64,000 nucleotides of DNA from Acidobacteriota bacterium. GTDB taxonomy: Bacteria > Acidobacteriota > Terriglobia > Bryobacterales > Bryobacteraceae. The DNA lies in assembly GCA_016871155.1 (NCBI GenBank), contig VFZO01000006.1, positions 1 to 64,000 on the forward strand. Direction: 5' to 3'. Below are positions 1,444 to 51,840 of the stretch, in pieces. Both the position numbers and the translations under genes were made by a program. Position 1 is the first letter of the stretch; the number at the start of each line of letters is the position of its first letter. The notes under the pieces were generated by a model. The model searched no databases and was not told the DNA's origin. It worked only from the letters and a program-made list of their open reading frames with translations.

Positions 1444-3941
1444 CACATCGCGCTCTGCTCCTGCTTCTCGCCGCTGGCCTCGCACTGGCGCAGCGAAAGG
1501 CCGAGTACGGAGCGCCGGTCTCCGATGAAGCGGCCCGCGTGTATGCCTCCGCCAAGACCGGCGGCAATTACATGCAGGCCTACTACATTCCCGCCACCGC
1601 CTCCACGCCGTGGCGGCCGTGCTTCTCGCCGGACGGCGAGTGGATCGCCTTCTCCATGGCCGGTTCCATTTGGAAGATTCCTCGCGAGGGCGGCACGGCC
1701 GAGCAGCTTACGGCCAACAAGACCTACGACTCTTCACCCGTCTGGTCCCCCGACGGCCGCTACATCGCCTATACCGCCGATCACGCGTATTTGCACGTGC
1801 GCCTGATGCTGCTCGATTTACAGACCGGCGAATCCCGCGCGCTCACGCAGGGCGAGAGCGTCAACCTGGACCCCGCGTGGTCGCCCGATGGCAAGTCCAT
1901 CGTCTATGTCTCCACCGCCGCCAAAGGCTGGTTTCACCTCCATCGCGCCGACATCGCCTCCGGCCGTATCCAACAGCTCACCACGGACCACCTCTTTCCG
2001 CGCTCCCGCCTCTACTTCGGCGCCATGGACCTTCACATTCAGCCGTCTGTTTCGCCCGATGGCCGCGAGCTTCTGCTGGTTTCGAATCGAAACATCCCGC
2101 TGGGCTCGGGCGGCATCTGGCGCGCGCCGCTGACGCAGGATCCCATGGCTGACGCCGCGCTGTTGCTGAAGGAAGAGACGCTCTACCGCACGCGGCCGCA
2201 ATGGTCGCCCGACGGTGCGCGGATTCTCTATAGCTCCCATCGCGGCAGCCAATACACGAACCTCTACCTCATCCCGGCTAAGGGCGGTGAGCCCTACCAA
2301 TTGACCTACGACGAATGGGACCACTTCGATCCGCGCTGGTCGCCCGACGGCGACCAGATGGTCTATGTGTCCAACCGCCAGGGCGTTTCGGAGTTGCGCC
2401 TGCGCGGCTCGTTTACCGGCGAGGACGTGCCCATCGCGATTCGGGACCGGAAGCCCAAGGGTCCCACAGGCACGCTTTCCGTCGCCCTCGCGGGCCCCGC
2501 GCGTATTCAGCTCACGGGTTCCGATGGCAAAGCGTACGCGCCCGCCACCGCCTTTCAGCGCGTGGCCGCGCGCGCCCAGCACTTCGACTTCTTTCATGTG
2601 AACGGCGCTTTCAAAGTAGATCTGCCCGCCGGGGAAACGACACTCATCGTCATGAACGGATTGGAGCGCATTCCAGTTACGCGCAAGGTCACCATTCAGC
2701 CCGGGCAGACGGCGGCGGTGAACGTCGCGCTCGAGCGTTTCACCGATTGGAAGGCGCGCGGCTGGTATTCCGGGTCGGACCACATTCACATGAACTATGG
2801 TGGGAACCTCCACAATACGCCGGAAAACATGTTGTTCATGGCTGCGGCGGAGGATCTCGACGTCGTCGGCGAGAAGATCGCCAATAAGGACAATCGCGTC
2901 TTCGACCATCAGTTTTTCGACGGGCCTTTCGACACGAAACGCTCCACCCCCGGGCGCATTCTCTCGTTCGGCCAGGAGTGGCGGCCGCCTTTCTGGGGCC
3001 ATCTGAACCTCATCAATTTATCCAAGCACCTGATCGCGCCCTTCACAACCGGCTACGAGGAAACCGCCATCGACAGCCTTTATCCCTCGAGCACCGACAT
3101 CTATCGGGCCGCCGTCAAACAGGGCGCGCTGGGCGGTTTCGTGCATGCGTTCCCGGCCGAGCCTGAAAAGAACGGCTACGGCCTGGCGCGCGGTTTCGCG
3201 CACGACATGGCGCTGGAGTCCTTCCAATACATCGAGATCATGACCAGCGCCACCTACGCCATGCATGGCGCGCGCGTCTGGCACCGGGCCCTGAACTGCG
3301 GTTACCGCATTACCGCCGCTGGCGGAGAGGACTCCATCACCGGTCTGCACCGCACACCGATCCTTGGCTCCGGCCGTATGTACGCCTACATGGGCCCGAA
3401 ACTCACCTGGCAAGGCTGGGTGGAGGCGATTCGCAAGGGCCGCACCTTTGTTACCAACGGCCCGCTGCTCAGCCTGACGGTGAACGGGCAGCGCCCCGGC
3501 AGCCAGATCGACGTAACGCCCGGCGCCTCGGTGCGCGTAGCCGCGATCGTGGAGTCCGCGTTTCCTGTCGACAAGGTCGAGCTTTTCCTGAACGGCGAAC
3601 CGGTTCAATCCGTCGATGCCGCGCCGGCTCGCAGGCATGCCTGGAACTGGACCATCCCCATCCCCCGCAGCGGCTGGCTTACGCTCCGCGCCACGTCGTC
3701 AAAGGCCGCGCCGCTGGCCGACGACACACATCTTTACGCCGAAACCAGCCCGGTCTACGTGATCGCAGGCGGCAAGCCCATCCGTTCCAAGAAAGACGCC
3801 GAGTACTTCCTTCGCTGGATCGACGACGTGGCGCATCAAGCCGAGACCGATCCCAACTGGCGTTCCGAAAAAGAGAAGGCGCACGTGCGCGCTCAGTTCG
3901 ACGAAGCCGCGCGCCGGCTGCGCGAGCGAGCCGTGGACTAG
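1440..3941 (+). CDS. Secreted TolB/PD40-like beta-propeller fused to a CehA/McbA (PHP-like) metallohydrolase domain
   Basis: Start at 1440 (ATGA overlap with upstream stop); signal peptide MTHRALLLLLAAGLALA|Q; repeated 'WSPDG' PD40 motifs; C-terminal 'YSGSDHIHMNYGG'. Confidence 0.8.
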   Translation: MTHRALLLLLAAGLALAQRKAEYGAPVSDEAARVYASAKTGGNYMQAYYIPATASTPWRPCFSPDGEWIAFSMAGSIWKIPREGGTAEQLTANKTYDSSPVWSPDGRYIAYTADHAYLHVRLMLLDLQTGESRALTQGESVNLDPAWSPDGKSIVYVSTAAKGWFHLHRADIASGRIQQLTTDHLFPRSRLYFGAMDLHIQPSVSPDGRELLLVSNRNIPLGSGGIWRAPLTQDPMADAALLLKEETLYRTRPQWSPDGARILYSSHRGSQYTNLYLIPAKGGEPYQLTYDEWDHFDPRWSPDGDQMVYVSNRQGVSELRLRGSFTGEDVPIAIRDRKPKGPTGTLSVALAGPARIQLTGSDGKAYAPATAFQRVAARAQHFDFFHVNGAFKVDLPAGETTLIVMNGLERIPVTRKVTIQPGQTAAVNVALERFTDWKARGWYSGSDHIHMNYGGNLHNTPENMLFMAAAEDLDVVGEKIANKDNRVFDHQFFDGPFDTKRSTPGRILSFGQEWRPPFWGHLNLINLSKHLIAPFTTGYEETAIDSLYPSSTDIYRAAVKQGALGGFVHAFPAEPEKNGYGLARGFAHDMALESFQYIEIMTSATYAMHGARVWHRALNCGYRITAAGGEDSITGLHRTPILGSGRMYAYMGPKLTWQGWVEAIRKGRTFVTNGPLLSLTVNGQRPGSQIDVTPGASVRVAAIVESAFPVDKVELFLNGEPVQSVDAAPARRHAWNWTIPIPRSGWLTLRATSSKAAPLADDTHLYAETSPVYVIAGGKPIRSKKDAEYFLRWIDDVAHQAETDPNWRSEKEKAHVRAQFDEAARRLRERAVD

Positions 3942-35405: not shown

Positions 35406-37271
35406 ATGCAACTCTGGCTCATCCCAATCCTCCCTCTGGCCGGCGCCGCGATAAACGGCCTGACCGGACGCCGCACCAGCAAATCGCTGCAGTCCGCGGT
35501 GGCCATCGGCAGCGTGCTGCTGTCGTTTCTCTGGGTCGTGAAGACCCTTCTTGGACTTGGTGCTCTGGAAGAGCGCTACGTTGAGCACTACTTCACCTGG
35601 ATCGCCTCTGGTTCGCTTTCGATCGGCGTCGACTTCGCGGTGGACCGGCTGACGGCGGTGATGCTGTGCGTGGTCACAGGCATCGGCACGCTCATCCACA
35701 TTTACGCCACCGGCTACATGCACGAGGAGGAAGGCTACTACCGGTTCTTCTCCTACCTGAACCTGTTCATGTTCTTCATGCTGGTGCTGGTGCTGGGCGC
35801 GAACTTCCTGCTTCTGTTCGTCGGCTGGGAAGGCGTGGGTTTGTGTTCGTACCTGCTCATCGGTTTCTACTTCCAGAAGCGGTCCGCGACCGACGCCGGT
35901 AAAAAGGCGTTCATCGTCAACCGGATCGGCGATTTTGGCTTCTCGCTGGCGATGTTCCTGATTGTGGTGCTGTTCGGTTCGCTCGACTTCGGCATTGTGT
36001 TTGAAAAGGCCAAGGCGCTGCCGGTGGAGGCGTCGGCCGGGATGATCACGGCGATCTGCCTCCTGCTGCTTGTTGGCGCGACGGGCAAGTCGGCGCAGAT
36101 TCCGCTGTACGTCTGGCTGCCGGACGCGATGGAAGGCCCCACACCGGTATCGGCGTTGATCCACGCCGCGACGATGGTGACGGCCGGCGTTTATATGTGC
36201 GCCCGTTCGGCCGCGCTGTTCATGAAGGCGCCGATCGCGATGGAAGCCGTTGCGGTGATCGGCCTGTTGACGGCCGTGATGGCGGCGACGATCGGCCTGG
36301 TCCAGAACGATATTAAGAAGGTCTACGCTTACTCGACGGTTTCGCAGCTTGGCTTCATGTTTCTGGCGGTGGGCTGCGGCGCGTTTGGCGCCGGCATCTA
36401 CCACGTGGTGACGCACGCCTTCTTCAAGGCGCTGTTGTTCCTGGGCGCCGGCTCGGTGATTCATGCCTGCCATCATGAGCAGGACATGCGCCACATGGGC
36501 GGGCTGCGCAAAAAAATTCCTCATACGTTTAACGTTCTTCTGATCGCCGCGCTGGCGATCGCCGGTTTTCCGATGATGTCGGGTTGGTGGTCCAAGGAAG
36601 ATATTCTCGGAGCGGCGATGCACCATCACGCCTGGATGTATTGGGCCGCGTGGGTCACGGCCGGAATGACGGCGTTCTACGTATTCCGTTCGATCTTCCT
36701 GACGTTCTTCGGCGAGTACAAGGGCCATGCGCATCCCCATGAGTCGCCCTGGGTGATGATTGGACCGCTGTATGTTCTGGCGATCCTTTCGGTGGTTGGC
36801 GGCTGGCTGTTCCGGATTCCGCACCTCCTGGAACCGGTGTTTAAGGGCATCGTTCCGGAGGGCCACTCCGAGCACTCCATGGCCGATATGATTTTGGGCA
36901 CCGCGCCCGGCCTGATCGGAATCGCGCTGGCCTACGTGGTTTACGTCGCGAGCCCGGGCATGGCCGATTCGATCAAGAGTTCGTTCCAGGGTCTCTACAA
37001 TTTGCTGCTGAACAAGTACTACGTTGACGAAGCGTACGATGCGACCATCGTGCATCCCATCGAACGCAGCTCCCGGAACTTCCTGTGGAAGGTGATGGAC
37101 GCCGGCGTGATCGACAACGGAATTGTCCACGGCTTCTCCGGCGGCGCCCAGAACCTGGGTAACCTGCTGCGGCGGATGCAAGGCGGCGAGATTCGCAACT
37201 ACGGCGCGTGGGTGGTCATCGGAGCGATCTTCGTCTTGGGCGCCTTCACCGTTCTGGGAGGTACGAAATGA
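35406..37271 (+). CDS. nuoL: NADH-quinone oxidoreductase subunit L
   Basis: 621 aa; 'VGWEGVGLCSYLLIGFYFQKRSATDAGKKAFIVNRIGDFGF', 'SAQIPLYVWLPDAMEGPTPVSALIHAATMVTAGVYM'. Confidence 0.96.
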   Translation: MQLWLIPILPLAGAAINGLTGRRTSKSLQSAVAIGSVLLSFLWVVKTLLGLGALEERYVEHYFTWIASGSLSIGVDFAVDRLTAVMLCVVTGIGTLIHIYATGYMHEEEGYYRFFSYLNLFMFFMLVLVLGANFLLLFVGWEGVGLCSYLLIGFYFQKRSATDAGKKAFIVNRIGDFGFSLAMFLIVVLFGSLDFGIVFEKAKALPVEASAGMITAICLLLLVGATGKSAQIPLYVWLPDAMEGPTPVSALIHAATMVTAGVYMCARSAALFMKAPIAMEAVAVIGLLTAVMAATIGLVQNDIKKVYAYSTVSQLGFMFLAVGCGAFGAGIYHVVTHAFFKALLFLGAGSVIHACHHEQDMRHMGGLRKKIPHTFNVLLIAALAIAGFPMMSGWWSKEDILGAAMHHHAWMYWAAWVTAGMTAFYVFRSIFLTFFGEYKGHAHPHESPWVMIGPLYVLAILSVVGGWLFRIPHLLEPVFKGIVPEGHSEHSMADMILGTAPGLIGIALAYVVYVASPGMADSIKSSFQGLYNLLLNKYYVDEAYDATIVHPIERSSRNFLWKVMDAGVIDNGIVHGFSGGAQNLGNLLRRMQGGEIRNYGAWVVIGAIFVLGAFTVLGGTK

Positions 37272-44844: not shown

Positions 44845-47751
44845 TTACTCGAGGGGAGGATGCGAGAGGGAGTCGGCGATCTCTTGAAACGCCTCGCGCA
44901 ATTTCTCTAGGCCTTGCATGCCGTTCCGGATGGCGGAGTCCGCGAGTGCGATGGCTTGTTGGATGTCGGCCTGTGATTGGTTGAACTCTCCGGATTTTGC
45001 GACCGCCCCGGACCGGTTCGCGTGCGTTTTGGCCAGAAGTGGGAGAAGTTCAGTGCGGCCGGATTCGACGAGGCGCTTGTAGATACGGATCGCGGCGCCG
45101 TACTCGGCAATAGCGGCGCCTAGTTGACCGAGCCTGTCGAGCGCGACGCCCTTGTTCATCCGGGCGGTGGCAAGTTCGTCTTCAAGTTCGATGCCGGCGG
45201 AGTCGACAAGCCTTTCGAAGATCTTGATCGCGGCGTCGGCTTCAGCGACGGCCGACGCTGCCCGGCCAAGATTGTTGAGAGCGATGCCTTTGCTCATGTG
45301 GGCGGCAGCGAGGGTGCGTTCTTGTTCGCTGTTGCGGGAGTCAACCAGATTTGTGAGTATTCGGATTGCGGCTTCAAATTCGGTGATAGCCGCAGCGGGT
45401 TGATCGCAATCGGCGAGTGCGCAACCCTTGTGCACTAGGGCAACCACAAGCCCGTCTTCGGAACTCACGAAAGGGATTTCGACGAGACGTTTAAGAATTT
45501 TTATGGCGGCGTCAAGTTCGGCGATAGCGGCGTGTGGTTGGCCGAGAATGCCGAATGCACGGCCCTTACTGCTGTAGGCGGCGGCGACGTAGTTTTCGTG
45601 CTCGTTGCTATCGGGACCGGCGAAACTTTCCAAGTTCTGGATGACGGATTCGAATTCCGTAATGGCGGCGGCGGGTTGGCCGAGATTGCAGAGAGCTTCG
45701 CCCTTGCTTATGCGGGCGCGGGCCAGGCTGCCTTCGAGTTCGGTGCGGCCTGATCCGACGACACGGGCGAGGATTCTCTCGGTAACCGCGAAGAGGTGCA
45801 GAGCGAGGCGATTCTCCTTACCACTCCACGCCTCATCGCCCCGATTCCCGCAGGCAAATGCTACCGCTTCTCCACCCGGCTCCGCCCATTCCCGAAGCAA
45901 TTCCTGAATCGGCAGCACGAGACCATACACGGTTACCGGCGCGCCGCCCGCGACGACTGAATCGCTAGCGACGATCATCCGGCTTTGCACTTGGCGGCTC
46001 AGGGCGGACTGGCGTGCCTGGTCGTCCGGCAGACCCAGTTCGATCGCCTCTTTCCGGAGCGGGAACGGGAACTGCGCCAGGAAGCCGAGCAGTTGGCGGT
46101 CCTCTTCGGCGAGGCGTTGCCAGTGGTGGAGGAGGATTGGCCGGAAGGCCTCCTGGCGGAGCGACTCGTCGGCCTGGTCGTAGCCGGCGAAGAGTTCCGG
46201 GTTGTTGAGAAAGTCGCGAAGCGTCGTCTCCGAACCGGGACCGTTCAGATACGACAGCACGGAGGAAAGCGCCAGCGGGATTCGGTGGACCCGCTCGAGC
46301 AGCGCGCGGAGGTCCGCATCGCTGGCCTTTCTTAAGCCGGTGGCTTGCGAATCCCTCCGCTCCGCCTGCAGCCATTCCAGGGCGGCCGCGGCATCCATGC
46401 CTACGCCGAGAGAATCCGTTGCGCCGAACGGCTGCAGCCGGCGCCGGGTGGGTGGAAGTTCCGGGAGCAAGCGGCTTTCAAACAGGAGGCAACAGCGATG
46501 TTCGCGCTCCCAGAGCATGCGCACGAGGGCGCCGAGTTCCGCATTTTGGAATCGGCCCTGCCCATCAAGCAGGTTTTCTGCGTTCTGCCAGAGCAGCCAG
46601 ATGCGGCCTGTGCCCGCACTGCGACTGAGTGTGGTAAGGGCATGCTCCAGCTTAATGGCGACAGGGAGATCCAAGGCGATCCGCTGTTCCCACTCCCGCC
46701 GACGGGATTCGTCCACCAGTTCGCCAACGCGGAGGAGGATGGCGGTGAGAGATGCCTGCGACGGGTCGCGAAAGTCCCAGCCAATGACGGCGGAGGCCTT
46801 TTGGGGATCCCAGTCCGCACCGGCGCGGGCAAGATTGAGAGAGGCGGTGAGAACGCCGGTTTTGCCAAAACCGGGCGGCGCAACGAGCACGATGACCTTG
46901 GCGCCATTTGGGTCTGCGGCCTCGTCGCAGACGGCGCGGGCTTCCCGTTCCCGGCCGTAGATAGGTGTGCTGAGAGAGGGCAGGGGGCCGGCCGTGCGGT
47001 AGGTGAGCGGGAGCGTCTGTTTCAGGAGTTGGAGTAGTTCGTCGAGCTTCAGGTGCACGGACTCAAAGCCGGCCTCGATTTGGCTCTGAATCCGGTTGAC
47101 GCCTTGCTCCCAGTCTGCCTCGATGAAGAGCCTGGAGCCGCCGGCGGTGCGAACATGGAGGTCCGCGAGGAGGCGGGCGAAAACGATCGAACGGAGAGGT
47201 TGATTTGATTGGATCTCCGCATGAAACAGCGCGGTGAAGTAGCGGGGCCAGCGCTCACGCAGCAACCTCCGCAGGTTGTCACGGAGTTCAGGTTGCGCAT
47301 GAGTGGCAGCGAAGTGCTCGTCCAGCGCCTTTTCGATGCGCTTGAGGACGATGCCTGTTACCGCTTCATGGCCGCGCGGGTCACTGACGAGGAGGCACTC
47401 AACTCGGGCATGGGCGTCGTCTACGGAGTCGACGGCCCAGTCGAGCGGGTTGACGGCGCGCGCCAGCAGAAGCGAATACAGGGTGCGGATCTGAGTTTGC
47501 TGGGGTTGCAGGAGGAAGCCAACGGGGGCGTCGGCAGGAGAGCGAATTGCTTTCCAAACCGAGGCCGCTTTCTGTACCAAGGACTCGAGCATTGGAGTCC
47601 CCTCGCCGGGGACGGCGAGCATCTCAGTCTTGGTGAGAGGCGCACCGATGCGGGTGCCGTAGTCATTTGCGACGGCGATGGCAGCGACCCAGTATGAGCG
47701 TAGGAGCGCACGCCTGAGGTCCTGACTCTCGTGCGGGCCTGCGAGGGACAA
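44845..47751 (-). CDS. STAND-type NTPase with C-terminal TPR array (reading frame probably continues upstream, see finding)
   Basis: Walker A 'VLVAPPGFGKTG' after 'PIYGREREARAV'; about five 46-aa helical repeats 'KGxALxxLGQPAAAIxEFxAAIxILxxLV'; apparent TTG start. Confidence 0.75.
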   Translation of the reverse strand: MSLAGPHESQDLRRALLRSYWVAAIAVANDYGTRIGAPLTKTEMLAVPGEGTPMLESLVQKAASVWKAIRSPADAPVGFLLQPQQTQIRTLYSLLLARAVNPLDWAVDSVDDAHARVECLLVSDPRGHEAVTGIVLKRIEKALDEHFAATHAQPELRDNLRRLLRERWPRYFTALFHAEIQSNQPLRSIVFARLLADLHVRTAGGSRLFIEADWEQGVNRIQSQIEAGFESVHLKLDELLQLLKQTLPLTYRTAGPLPSLSTPIYGREREARAVCDEAADPNGAKVIVLVAPPGFGKTGVLTASLNLARAGADWDPQKASAVIGWDFRDPSQASLTAILLRVGELVDESRRREWEQRIALDLPVAIKLEHALTTLSRSAGTGRIWLLWQNAENLLDGQGRFQNAELGALVRMLWEREHRCCLLFESRLLPELPPTRRRLQPFGATDSLGVGMDAAAALEWLQAERRDSQATGLRKASDADLRALLERVHRIPLALSSVLSYLNGPGSETTLRDFLNNPELFAGYDQADESLRQEAFRPILLHHWQRLAEEDRQLLGFLAQFPFPLRKEAIELGLPDDQARQSALSRQVQSRMIVASDSVVAGGAPVTVYGLVLPIQELLREWAEPGGEAVAFACGNRGDEAWSGKENRLALHLFAVTERILARVVGSGRTELEGSLARARISKGEALCNLGQPAAAITEFESVIQNLESFAGPDSNEHENYVAAAYSSKGRAFGILGQPHAAIAELDAAIKILKRLVEIPFVSSEDGLVVALVHKGCALADCDQPAAAITEFEAAIRILTNLVDSRNSEQERTLAAAHMSKGIALNNLGRAASAVAEADAAIKIFERLVDSAGIELEDELATARMNKGVALDRLGQLGAAIAEYGAAIRIYKRLVESGRTELLPLLAKTHANRSGAVAKSGEFNQSQADIQQAIALADSAIRNGMQGLEKLREAFQEIADSLSHPPLE
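45000..45730 (-). repeat. TPR-like coding repeats (about 46 aa each) in the STAND protein
   Basis: Repeated 'AxxxKGxALxxLGQPAAAIxEFxAAIxILxxLVxS' in the translation. Confidence 0.65.
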
Positions 47752-47899
47752 CCTTTTTGTCGATGACGGCTAAAAAGTTGCCGATGGACTGGTCGGTGCG
47801 GCCGCCGCCGACCTCGCCGAGAAGGCCGGCGAGGGTCGACTCCTTATTTACGAGTTGCAGGGCGGCAATACTAAACCCCACGAGGGCTAAGTCAGGCAT
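47663..47899 (-). CDS. Probable 5' part (first ~49 codons) of the STAND gene, in a frame offset by 1 nt
   Basis: MPDLALVGFSIAALQLVNKESTLAGLLGEVGGGRTDQSIGNFLAVIDKK-; distance 47751 to 47899 is 148 nt, so one nt removed restores frame. Confidence 0.6.
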   Translation of the reverse strand: MPDLALVGFSIAALQLVNKESTLAGLLGEVGGGRTDQSIGNFLAVIDKKVVPRRPARESGPQACAPTLILGRCHRRRK

Positions 47900-48045
47900 A
47901 CCGAAACCCCTATGCTATCAGCAGGCGGAGAGGCTGGTTCCGCGGCGGAACCCATCGGCGATGGATGACCGGGGGTGACCCACGCCCCCGGTGCGCCTCG
48001 AATTTTGCTAACCTTCCAGGTACTTCACCTTCTAGTAACGGGCCG

Positions 48046-51000
48046 ATGCTTACTCGGGGATTTTTCATACTATTGACCGCGTTGCCGCTGCTTGGGCAGA
48101 GCAATGCCACGATTACCGGGCTTGTCGCCGATCAATCCGGCGCGCCGGTGGCGGGCGTGAAAGTCGCGATTCTGGCCACGGGGACGAACACCACGCAGGA
48201 GACGTTGACCAACGACATCGGCTCCTACACCGTGCCCGCGCTGCCGCCGGGGTCCTACATCGTGTCCGTGGACTTGAGCGGCTTTAAGAAAGCCGCTTCG
48301 CGGGAGCTTCGCGCCGATTCGGGCTCCACGTTGCGCGTCGATCTGACGCTGGTTCCGGCGGACTCAAAGCAAGTGATCGACGTCTCGGCGGACCCGCCGA
48401 CAATCGAGACGCAGAACTCGATGCTTTCGAATTCCGTCTCCGAGCGCGAACTGAATTCGCTGCCAATAGGTGCGCGGAACGTGCTGGATTTGGCCATGAC
48501 GATGCCGGGCGTGGTTGGCGACCCAGGTTCCGACGAAGCCGGCATTTTCATGGACGTGCCCAGCGCCGGATCCGGTATGTCGATTGGCGGCGGGCGCGCG
48601 GGATCGTCGGCGATCCTGGCCGACGGGGCCAACGCGACCTCGATCGGCATCGGCCGCGCCACCGTTACCTTCACGCCGGATACCGTGCAGGAGGTGCAGA
48701 TTATCACGTCGACGTTTTCGGCCAAGTACGGGAACTCCGGCGGCGGGGTGGTGCAGACCGTTTCCCGGGCCGGCACGGACCGCTATCGCGGTACGGCTTA
48801 CTACTTCCACCGCAACCCCTGGTTCGCGGCGCGCGGGTTCAACCGGCCGTTCGCGCCGGCGGGGCGCAGGCACGAAGGCGGGCTGACGTTCTCCGGCCCG
48901 TTGCGGATTCCCAAGCTTTACGACGGCAAGGGCAAGACCTGGTTTTTCGCGGCGGTCGAGCCGAAGACGTATTTCGATCAGATCGAGATTTATGACCGCT
49001 TCCCGACGCCCGAGGAGCGGAACGGAGACTTCCGGAACTCCTGGGTGCCGCCGGGCCAGGTGCGGCCGCGGATTTTTCAGACCGTTCGGTGCGGCGATCC
49101 GCAGTGTTCGCAACTGGTGCCGATGCATCGCCCGTCGACGACGGCGCAGTACCCGCTCTGGTCGGCGGGCGATCCGGATCCGTCGAAGCGCGGATACGTG
49201 ATTCCCCGCCAGTATTTCGACCCGCTGGCGCTGAAAATTCTGCAAGAGCTGCCGATGCCGAATCAGCCGTTCGACGCCGGCGGCCGCAACTATATAGGGG
49301 TTCGCGGCGTGAGCGGGCGCAGCAACCGGGTGCAAGCGAAGGTGGACCATAACATCACGCCGAAGAACCGGCTCTCCGCCACCTACCGCGAAGTGCCGAA
49401 CTTCTCCGACCGGTTTCGCGTGCGCAAGGACGAACTGTTTTTCACGTTCCCCGGAGATAAGAGCCTAACGCGGCAGGCGCTGCTGTCGAATTCCTACACC
49501 ATCTCCCCGTCGGCGGTGAACGAACTGCGGGCCAGCTATACGTTCGCCGACTACAGCCGCACGCCGCCCGGCGAGGTGGGCACCACCAACTTCACCAAGG
49601 ACAAGTTCGGACTGCCCAACGTTACCGACTGGGGATACCCGCTGTTCAACTTCAACTCGCAGTTTGGAAGCGCGCTGGGCTCCATTGGATTGAACGGGGC
49701 CATGGGTAACTACCTCGAGCACCAATACCAGGTCTCCGACGATTTGACGATTATCAAGGGCCGGCACAACATTTCGATCGGCGGCGATTATCGGAAGCTG
49801 ATGCTGAACATCAAGTCGAACGGGCTGCGCGATTTGTGCTGCGGCACCTACACGTTTAACCCGGCCCAGACGAACTCCGGAAACGCGAATACGCCGGGCG
49901 GAACGGGCGGCTGGAGCCTGGCCGGCTTTCTGCTGGGTACGCCGAACGGGATAACGCTGCGCAGCCTGCTGGTGCCCTACTACTACCGCTGGACGGTGGC
50001 CGCCGCCTACTTTCAGGACGACTATCGCGTACGCCGCGATTTGACGTTGAACCTGGGCGTGCGCTGGCAGTTCAATTCGCCGCGCATTGAGAAGTTCAAC
50101 CGGCAAGCGGCGTTCGACTACGACAACCCTATTCCGATCGAGAACAACGCGGGCGAAGTGAGCCGCTATGCCTTCAACTATCTCTACTCCGGCATCGGCG
50201 GGCGAAGCCGGTATTTGGAGCAGCCGCACTACAAGAATTTCGAACCGCGCTTCGGTTTCGCGTGGCAACCGCCCGCCGGGTTCCTGAAGCGCCGCAGCTT
50301 CGTCGTCCGCGGCGGCTATGGCATTTCGCATCCGCCCACGACGTCGCGCGGCCGCGATCCGATTCCCGATTTCGGCGTCGGCTCATCGGGCTCCTGGGGG
50401 TATCTGCGCTGGCAATCGGCCACCGCCGTGCCTGCGCGCACGCAGGGCCGGGACCCGGCCTATACCGTCACGATCGGGCGCAATCCGCCGGTGCTGCGGG
50501 CGAACTACGGGATCTTCGATATACCGGCCGACGGCAAGCTGTGCGTCGGCTGCGGCACGGTGCAGGACGATCGCGTTCCGGCGGGCGCGCGCGTGGTGTT
50601 CGCGCAGGACGCGAACTCTCCCTACGTGCAGACCTGGAACTTTACGACGGAGTTCTTACTGCCCGCCCGATTCGTCGTGCGCACGAGCTATATGGGGCAG
50701 AAGGGCACCCACCTGTATTCGCCGCTGCTGGGCGTGAATTTTCCGGACCGGCAGGATTACGAGGAGATGCTGGCCGAGGGCATCGACCCGAACGAGTTGA
50801 TCGACGATCCGTTCGGCCGCGTGGATCAGGCGGGTAATCCGCTGCAGCGGCCGCGCATCGACTATTTGCGGCCCAATCCGCTGGTGGGCGATGTAAACGT
50901 GGGCGGCCTGACGAGCGCCAAATCCGTTTACCACGCGGGGTCGTTGTCGTTCGACCGCCGCATGCAGAAGGGCGTGTTGTTGCGGGCGAACTACACGTGG

Positions 51001-51840
51001 GGCAAGTCGATCGACACGACGTCCGATGCGACGCTGAACGGCCCGAATCTCTACCTGTGGGGCAGTACGCGCATTCAGGACGCGCTGGATATGAAGGCGA
51101 ACCGGTCGGTGTCCAACTTCGACATCCGGCACCGCGTCAATATCGTCGCCAGCTACGATTTGCCGTTCGGACGCGGGCAGCGGCTCTTCCGCCGCGCGAG
51201 CCGGAAGTTGACGATGCTGATCGGGAACTGGAGCGCCTCGACGATTATTACGACGCAGAGCGGATTCCCGTTCTCACCGTTTCTGAACGACGCGAACGGC
51301 ATCCCCGGCGGCGCGACAGGCACGGAGCGGATCCGGCCGAATATGGTTCCCGGCGCTCCGCTGCGCAATCCGCGATGGTCGCGGCAGGTGGCCAACGACG
51401 TTCCGTACTTCAATCCCGAAGCGTTTGCGCGGCCGGAGTTCGGCAATCTGGGCGATGCGCCGCGCACGCTCGACTACGCGCGCAATCCCTGGCGCTACAC
51501 CTCGAACCTGACGCTGATCAAGCCGATCTTCCCGTGGAAGGAGCGTCGCAAGTTTTTTGAGCTGCGCGCCGAGGCCTACAACGTAACCAACACGCCCGTT
51601 TTCACGCTCGATAGCGGCATCAGCTACAGCATGTTCTCTTCGTCGCCGCCGGTGTGCCGCATCGGCTGCCCGTCGCTGGCGGGGCCCATGCCCTACTTCT
51701 GGGATCGCACCACGGCGCCGGCCGCCGGCACGCGCGAAGCGATTCTGGCCAACAACTACAACCAGAACTTCGGCAAACTGTGGCGCGACCGCAATGGCCC
51801 GGGCCGGATTATGCAGTTCGCCCTGAAGTTCTATTTCTAG
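48046..51840 (+). CDS. Oar-like TonB-dependent outer membrane receptor with carboxypeptidase-regulatory-like N-terminal domain
   Basis: Signal MLTRGFFILLTALPLLG|Q; 'ATITGLVADQSGAPVAGVKVAIL'; Plug-like region; C-terminal 'RIMQFALKFYF'. Confidence 0.85.
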   Translation: MLTRGFFILLTALPLLGQSNATITGLVADQSGAPVAGVKVAILATGTNTTQETLTNDIGSYTVPALPPGSYIVSVDLSGFKKAASRELRADSGSTLRVDLTLVPADSKQVIDVSADPPTIETQNSMLSNSVSERELNSLPIGARNVLDLAMTMPGVVGDPGSDEAGIFMDVPSAGSGMSIGGGRAGSSAILADGANATSIGIGRATVTFTPDTVQEVQIITSTFSAKYGNSGGGVVQTVSRAGTDRYRGTAYYFHRNPWFAARGFNRPFAPAGRRHEGGLTFSGPLRIPKLYDGKGKTWFFAAVEPKTYFDQIEIYDRFPTPEERNGDFRNSWVPPGQVRPRIFQTVRCGDPQCSQLVPMHRPSTTAQYPLWSAGDPDPSKRGYVIPRQYFDPLALKILQELPMPNQPFDAGGRNYIGVRGVSGRSNRVQAKVDHNITPKNRLSATYREVPNFSDRFRVRKDELFFTFPGDKSLTRQALLSNSYTISPSAVNELRASYTFADYSRTPPGEVGTTNFTKDKFGLPNVTDWGYPLFNFNSQFGSALGSIGLNGAMGNYLEHQYQVSDDLTIIKGRHNISIGGDYRKLMLNIKSNGLRDLCCGTYTFNPAQTNSGNANTPGGTGGWSLAGFLLGTPNGITLRSLLVPYYYRWTVAAAYFQDDYRVRRDLTLNLGVRWQFNSPRIEKFNRQAAFDYDNPIPIENNAGEVSRYAFNYLYSGIGGRSRYLEQPHYKNFEPRFGFAWQPPAGFLKRRSFVVRGGYGISHPPTTSRGRDPIPDFGVGSSGSWGYLRWQSATAVPARTQGRDPAYTVTIGRNPPVLRANYGIFDIPADGKLCVGCGTVQDDRVPAGARVVFAQDANSPYVQTWNFTTEFLLPARFVVRTSYMGQKGTHLYSPLLGVNFPDRQDYEEMLAEGIDPNELIDDPFGRVDQAGNPLQRPRIDYLRPNPLVGDVNVGGLTSAKSVYHAGSLSFDRRMQKGVLLRANYTWGKSIDTTSDATLNGPNLYLWGSTRIQDALDMKANRSVSNFDIRHRVNIVASYDLPFGRGQRLFRRASRKLTMLIGNWSASTIITTQSGFPFSPFLNDANGIPGGATGTERIRPNMVPGAPLRNPRWSRQVANDVPYFNPEAFARPEFGNLGDAPRTLDYARNPWRYTSNLTLIKPIFPWKERRKFFELRAEAYNVTNTPVFTLDSGISYSMFSSSPPVCRIGCPSLAGPMPYFWDRTTAPAAGTREAILANNYNQNFGKLWRDRNGPGRIMQFALKFYF

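What the first reader, a model, noticed from the sequence alone, without database searches (positions are those of the whole stretch)
47742..47899. STAND-TPR gene split by a single nucleotide at an A5 tract
Seen: ORF 47899→47663 (minus) encodes MPDLALVGFSIAALQLVNKESTLAGLLGEVGGGRTDQSIGNFLAVIDKK, then drifts into unrelated residues. The STAND ORF begins with TTG at 47751 as (L)SLAGPHESQDLRRALLRSYWVAAIAV. The two starts are 148 nt apart (49 codons + 1 nt). At the junction the minus strand reads GTCATCGACAAAAAGGTTGTCCCTC (T5 on the plus strand at 47754-47758). Removing one A gives a continuous ~1017-aa protein, …AVIDKRLSLAGPHESQDLRRALLRSYW…. Possible causes are a sequencing indel, a pseudogene, phase variation at the homopolymer, or a +1/-2 programmed frameshift acting as a switch on an NLR-like protein.
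Basis: partly seen in the sequence, partly recalled or inferred. Interest (0 to 1): 0.72.

Follow-up and report, generated by a model that had tools for sequence, protein, structure and literature searches.

The report
Frameshift-broken bacterial NLR-like (STAND-TPR) gene
An Acidobacteriota genome carries an immune-receptor-like gene whose reading frame is broken near its start; relatives have the same parts in one unbroken frame, so this looks like an ordinary inactivating mutation (or, less likely, an assembly error) rather than a molecular switch, in a gene family that seems to be broken rather often.

Summary
That both pieces are one gene is supported: a profile built only from relatives scores the downstream piece at 63.4 bits and the joined piece at 80.4; none of 1000 shuffled N-parts reaches that. 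Fourteen related loci encode the same ~280-aa all-helical N-domain in a single frame. The switch readings are not supported: no site is conserved in relatives, A5 is shorter than tracts treated as phase-variable, there is no stimulatory RNA fold, and no start close enough for coupling. Frame decoding of 464 kb of the same assembly found no other mid-gene break, so sequencing error is possible but less likely than a real mutation. Five of 19 N-domain loci are interrupted, including a second one in this genome (in-frame TGA followed by ATG). Best reading: a recently frameshifted, probably inactivated NLR-like gene. By-product: an N-terminal domain without a Pfam match, joined to varied STAND NTPases and repeats, seen in only one Acidobacteriota family in my searches.

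The parts
47756..47899 (-). N-terminal part (48 codons) of the N-domain, frame 0, ATG start with AGGGG upstream; encodes helix 1 and most of helix 2 of the domain
   Evidence: structure models
47663..47899 (-). 78-aa open frame as it stands: 48-49 native residues, then about 29 out-of-frame residues to a stop
47754..47758 (-). AAAAA tract, most likely site of the indel (break confined to about 47722-47770)
44845..47751 (-). Downstream frame (968 aa from TTG): rest of the N-domain, P-loop STAND-like NTPase, C-terminal TPRs
46999..47755 (-). Rest of the ~280-aa all-helical N-domain (ESQDLRRALLRSYW element, RERWPRYF element) in the downstream frame
46858..46890 (-). Walker A region VLVAPPGFGKT
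46573..46599 (-). Degenerate Walker B region WLLWQNAEN (no acidic residue at the usual place)
47590..47622 (-). Possible internal restarts ATG 47622 and ATG 47592 (the latter with GAGGGG 6 nt upstream), 41 and 71 nt past the stop of the 78-aa frame; the product would lack the first third of the N-domain
   Evidence: role is inference

Best explanation
A bacterial NLR-like gene (N-domain, P-loop STAND-like NTPase, TPR sensor) has suffered a recent frame-changing indel in codons 43-60, most likely in the AAAAA tract. Translation from the true start (ATG 47899) now yields 48 native residues plus unrelated ones and stops at 47663, so the full receptor is not made; at most some N-truncated protein could come from internal starts. 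In intact relatives the N-domain, presumably the signalling or effector end, is fused to the NTPase, which by analogy with NLRs would multimerise when the TPRs sense a ligand. The gene is probably an inactivated accessory immune-type gene. Shown: the split, the homology of both parts, fusion in relatives. Inferred: reality of the mutation, loss of function, immune role.
For: Relatives-only profile: joined 80.4 vs 63.4 bits, 0 of 1000 shuffles reach it. N-domain in one frame with what follows in 14 other loci, several running only to a contig end. The assembly looks indel-poor: about 100 homopolymers of 5 nt or more in 42 window ORFs are in frame; 427 kb of decoded coding sequence from 21 stretches of the same genome show no mid-gene break. 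Interruption is common in this family: 5 of 19 loci (window; G000:C167 in-frame stop; G549:C23 two frameshifts; G635:C84 decayed; G550:C115 remnant). A nonsense codon, as at G000:C167, is not a homopolymer artefact. No other lesion in the 968-codon downstream frame, so the break would be recent.
Against: No raw reads and no second assembly of the species could be examined; a single indel error cannot be excluded. The downstream frame is intact over 968 codons, which also fits an error in a functional gene; the GeneTack authors expect homology-validated singletons to be mostly sequencing errors (PMC3711429). The frame decoding cannot see pieces under about 120 nt and missed the window's own N-part.
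Confidence: 0.65

Rival explanations
1. Sequencing or assembly indel at the A5 tract in a functional, intact gene.
For: Singleton; downstream frame otherwise perfect; draft assembly in 577 contigs with 6.5% contamination, apparently a MAG; PMC3711429 expects validated singletons to be mainly errors.
Against: No other mid-gene frame break in 464 kb of the same assembly; about 100 other homopolymers of 5-7 nt in window genes are in frame; the sister gene in the genome is interrupted by a nonsense codon, not an indel.
Confidence: 0.24
2. Phase variation: slipped-strand mispairing at the A-tract reversibly switches the receptor on and off.
For: Poly-A tracts near gene starts are over-represented, and an A6/A7 tract in L. 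monocytogenes inlA mutates about 1000-fold above the average point mutation frequency (PMC2831843); the position near the 5' end fits.
Against: A5 is shorter than that tract and than the 7-nt limit used in PMC3711429; there are 24 A5 and 25 T5 runs in this window alone; 16 of 17 other family loci have no run of 5 or more there, and the one that does (G561) is in frame with the run in another codon phase.
Confidence: 0.05
3. Programmed +1 (or -2) ribosomal frameshifting or transcriptional slippage makes the fusion protein.
For: A-rich site; G549:C23 has a frame change of the same direction at nearly the same place (model positions 47-51).
Against: No shared motif between the two sites (window GACAAAAAGG, G549 GCGTCATTTCTTC); the G549 gene has a second frameshift further on; 14 loci are in frame; no stop codon or known +1 heptamer; RNA downstream is less structured than shuffles (z +1.31); transcriptional slippage sites are usually 8 nt or longer (PMC3711429).
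Confidence: 0.03
4. A functional split: the small N-piece and an internally started STAND protein are separate products (termination-reinitiation).
For: G000:C167, the second family member in the same genome, is split as TGA immediately followed by ATG; in the window ATG 47592 has GAGGGG 6 nt upstream, 71 nt past the first stop.
Against: In the window residues 49 to about 92, including the NHDL-type element, would be in neither product; no start within 20 nt of the stop; relatives are fused.
Confidence: 0.03

Closest known systems
Frameshifted 'singleton' genes / pseudogenes as classified by GeneTack (Antonov et al. 2013, PMC3711429)
   Same: Homology-validated frame change in one genome, relatives in frame, no conserved site
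   Different: Nothing in kind; error and mutation cannot be told apart without reads
STAND/NLR-like proteins with NB-ARC or NACHT NTPase and TPRs (architectures in PMC7159879; bacterial NLR-related bNACHT proteins, PMC12169576)
   Same: N-terminal domain, P-loop NTPase, C-terminal TPRs; relatives with the same N-domain hit NB-ARC or NACHT
   Different: The window NTPase gives no NB-ARC or NACHT hit and lacks the Walker B acid; the N-domain has no Pfam, PDB-sequence or convincing fold match
L. monocytogenes inlA poly-A inactivation (PMC2831843)
   Same: Frameshift in a short A-tract near the 5' end gives a truncated product
   Different: A6/A7 there with a measured high mutation frequency; A5 here with no evidence of reversion

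Membership tests
Programmed frameshift gene | Frameshift site conserved among homologues | tested here: not met
   14 loci in one frame; no conserved heptamer in phase at the aligned site in 17 sequences
Programmed frameshift gene | Slippery heptamer plus stimulator (stop codon/SD or downstream RNA structure) | tested here: not met
   Site is GAC AAA AAG G, no stop codon; downstream fold z +1.31
Phase-variable gene | Long homopolymer or repeat (7 nt or more) at the switch point | tested here: not met
   A5 only; limit from PMC3711429
Phase-variable gene | Both tract lengths present in a population | not testable with these tools
   no reads available
Translationally coupled gene pair | Second start within 10-20 nt of the first stop | tested here: not met
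   in-frame starts are TTG 88 nt upstream and ATG 41 nt downstream of the stop
Frameshifted pseudogene | Relatives intact in one frame, this copy broken | tested here: met
Frameshifted pseudogene | Lesion is real, not a sequencing error | tested here: inconclusive
   assembly appears indel-poor but there are no reads
STAND/NLR-like NTPase | Walker A P-loop | tested here: met
   APPGFGKT aligns with APPGFGKS of the G542 relative, 28% identity over 725 columns
STAND/NLR-like NTPase | Acidic Walker B | tested here: not met
   WLLWQNAEN in the window against WLVVENAER in G542 and LLLILDDVW in G000:C167
STAND/NLR-like NTPase | NB-ARC/NACHT profile match | tested here: not met
   window best AAA_22 E=0.022; relatives with the same N-domain match NB-ARC or NACHT, so the protein is STAND-like by relationship and layout, not by profile
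STAND/NLR-like NTPase | C-terminal superstructure-forming repeats | tested here: met
   TPR_8 1.2e-11, TPR_2 1.1e-8

The most novel reading that the evidence does not exclude
Uncoupling of the N-domain from the STAND NTPase is a recurrent, selected event in this family (two of two members in this genome, five of 19 loci overall, two with a same-direction frame change at nearly the same place): a frequently used way to disarm or split NLR-like receptors whose N-terminal domain is a new, lineage-restricted effector or signalling module.
Probability: 0.08. Interest if true: 0.65.

Novelty: new member of a known kind. Interest (0 to 1): 0.28.

Why it matters
As a frameshift it is ordinary: one more broken or mis-sequenced accessory gene, and a caution against reading a switch into it. 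What the check uncovered is more useful: a ~280-aa all-helical N-terminal domain with no Pfam match that is shuffled among NB-ARC+TPR, NACHT+FGE-sulfatase-like and NTPase-less architectures in one Acidobacteriota family, and that is interrupted in about a quarter of its loci. If confirmed, that would be a candidate effector-associated domain of bacterial NLRs with a measurable inactivation rate.

Tried and rejected
Single-protein scan of genome contigs: no relative; the two-row profile found one, which appears to be the public record of the same-genus hit (same 3601-base contig length). The phylum search with a profile that included the P-loop was swamped by generic P-loop hits, so it was repeated with the N-domain alone. 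Plasmids: only TPR matches for the whole protein, none for the N-domain; phages: none; viral contigs could not be scanned with the alignment. PADLOC: no hit for the window protein, only weak partial hits for some relatives. PDB by sequence and two Foldseek searches of moderate-confidence models: nothing better than E 0.098, so a HeLo/Bcl-2-like idea for the hydrophobic N-terminus (a recollection, not a test) found no support. Eight apparent mid-gene frame breaks in the genome scan turned out to be ordinary gene ends when read by eye. A conserved frameshift site shared with G549:C23 was considered and rejected because the motifs differ and that gene has a second frameshift.

Full report
What is there. 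On the minus strand, ATG 47899, preceded by CATAGGGGTTTCGGT (Shine-Dalgarno-like AGGGG, 7-nt spacing), opens a 78-aa frame that ends at 47663. One base out of phase, a 968-aa frame runs from TTG 47751 to 44845. At the hand-over the strand reads GTCATCGACAAAAAGGTTGTCCCTC. Every coordinate and peptide in the finding is right. TTG 47751 has AAGG touching it, so it is a poor start.

Do the two frames belong together? Yes. The 18 same-genus genomes searched hold no close homologue; the only relative of the N-terminal region there is G012:C531, which has a continuous N-terminus followed by the same region and P-loop. A profile from these two found further relatives in the same order, and they all begin with a short hydrophobic segment, a GN(R)xD-like element, then an NHDLxRAL-type element, a WFxxF-type element and, in most, a P-loop, in one frame. 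To avoid circularity I built a profile from 12 relatives without the window: the downstream part alone scores 63.4 bits, the N-part joined to it with X at the junction 80.4; 1000 joined shuffles of the N-part average 63.5 with a maximum of 71.9; about 2700 other 48-residue pieces from window ORFs give nothing higher except two that repeat the STAND gene's own segment. So the 48 residues are the start of the same domain.

Where is the break? Reading frame 0 up to codon k and then stepping one base, the relatives' profile scores best at 47755-47758, the A5 tract, but scores stay within about 3.5 bits from 47770 to about 47725. A5 is the likely site; the data confine it to about 50 nt.

Is it an assembly artefact? 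The genome is a draft of 7.2 Mb in 577 contigs with 6.5% contamination. In the window about 100 homopolymers of 5-7 nt lie inside 42 gene-length ORFs and none breaks a frame. I then decoded coding frames with a periodic Markov model over 464 kb of the same assembly (window plus twenty 20-kb stretches): 62 direct same-strand frame changes were listed; nearly all lie within 45 nt of the upstream frame's stop, and the eight first flagged as farther away read by eye as ordinary gene ends. The method does not see pieces shorter than about 120 nt and missed the window's own N-part, so this bounds the error rate but does not prove the lesion. No reads were available.

Is it a switch? Against the published criteria for frame transitions (PMC3711429): programmed frameshifting needs a conserved site, but 14 loci are in frame, and among 17 aligned relatives only one (G561) has an A5 near the site, in another codon phase and in an unbroken frame; there is no stop codon or stimulatory RNA fold (z +1.31). 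Phase variation is assigned there to tracts of 7 nt or more; A5 occurs 24 times and T5 25 times in this window alone. Poly-A tracts near gene starts can mutate fast (PMC2831843), so a slip at A5 is plausible as a mutation mechanism without being a switch. Translational coupling needs a start within 10-20 nt of the stop; the nearest are 88 nt upstream and 41 nt downstream.

The family. With the N-domain alone as query, the phylum sample gave no match outside this genome and the family sample gave further members. Together with those there are 19 loci, all in one family-level group (f1) of the phylum; that the phylum is Acidobacteriota is inferred from the record title of what appears to be the G012 contig. 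Layouts: N-domain + NB-ARC (G636, G634, and with TPRs G498, G549:C6), NACHT + FGE-sulfatase-like domain (G635:C234), FxSxx-type ATPase + TPR (G513; G502 below the curated cut-off), AAA_16-like + TPR (G542, below cut-off), and TPRs or no recognised domain without an NTPase in the part held (G561, G635:C111). Structure models of the domain are all-helical and of moderate confidence (mean pLDDT 65 and 74), with no credible PDB match. The window's break falls near the end of helix 2.

Interrupted members. Besides the window: G000:C167 in the same genome, where a 114-aa N-part ends in TGA directly followed by the ATG of a 696-aa NB-ARC protein in the same frame; G549:C23 with a frame change at nearly the same place and a second one later; G635:C84 spread over several frames with no NTPase; G550:C115, a remnant. 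Five of 19 is high, but the loci were found through their N-domain and the sample is small; the near-coincidence of two break points is not significant with so few (inference). The C167 case is a nonsense codon and so speaks for real inactivation in this genome, although a stop-start split cannot be excluded there.

Best explanation. A recent inactivating frameshift in an accessory NLR-like gene, 0.65; sequencing error, 0.24; the switch and split readings together about 0.11. The NTPase of this copy also lacks the Walker B acid (WLLWQNAEN; the nearest full relative has WLVVENAER), which may mean it was already an unusual or degenerate member. Function as an immune receptor is inference from architecture; PADLOC gives no hit to the window protein.

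Noticed in passing
L147 (G000:C167) 383-2818: Second N-domain NLR-like gene of the same genome, split by an in-frame TGA immediately followed by ATG; NB-ARC with LLLILDDVW Walker B and repeats downstream.
   Followed up: partly
L164 (G549:C23) about 2003-3526, minus strand: N-domain gene with two frame changes, the first of the same direction and nearly the same place as the window's, without a shared motif.
   Followed up: partly
L142 (G635:C84) 164-700 and L165 (G550:C115) about 530-736: Decayed and remnant copies of the same N-domain.
   Followed up: partly
window 46999-47899 and 18 related loci: ~280-aa all-helical N-terminal domain without a Pfam match, combined with NB-ARC, NACHT, FxSxx-type ATPase, TPR and FGE-sulfatase-like partners, found in only one Acidobacteriota family in these searches.
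   Followed up: partly
window 46573-46599 (residues 385-393 of the 968-aa frame): Walker B region WLLWQNAEN lacks an acidic catalytic residue; the closest full relative has WLVVENAER.
   Followed up: partly
window 47592-47613: ATG with GAGGGG 6 nt upstream, an internal start candidate downstream of the broken part.
   Followed up: no
window 47965-51840 (+): Divergent gene for a TonB-dependent outer-membrane protein with a carboxypeptidase-regulatory-like domain; no defence-gene context was noticed around the STAND gene.
   Followed up: no
window 36510-36516: A7 run inside an intact NuoL-like gene, longer than the A5 tract and in frame.
   Followed up: no
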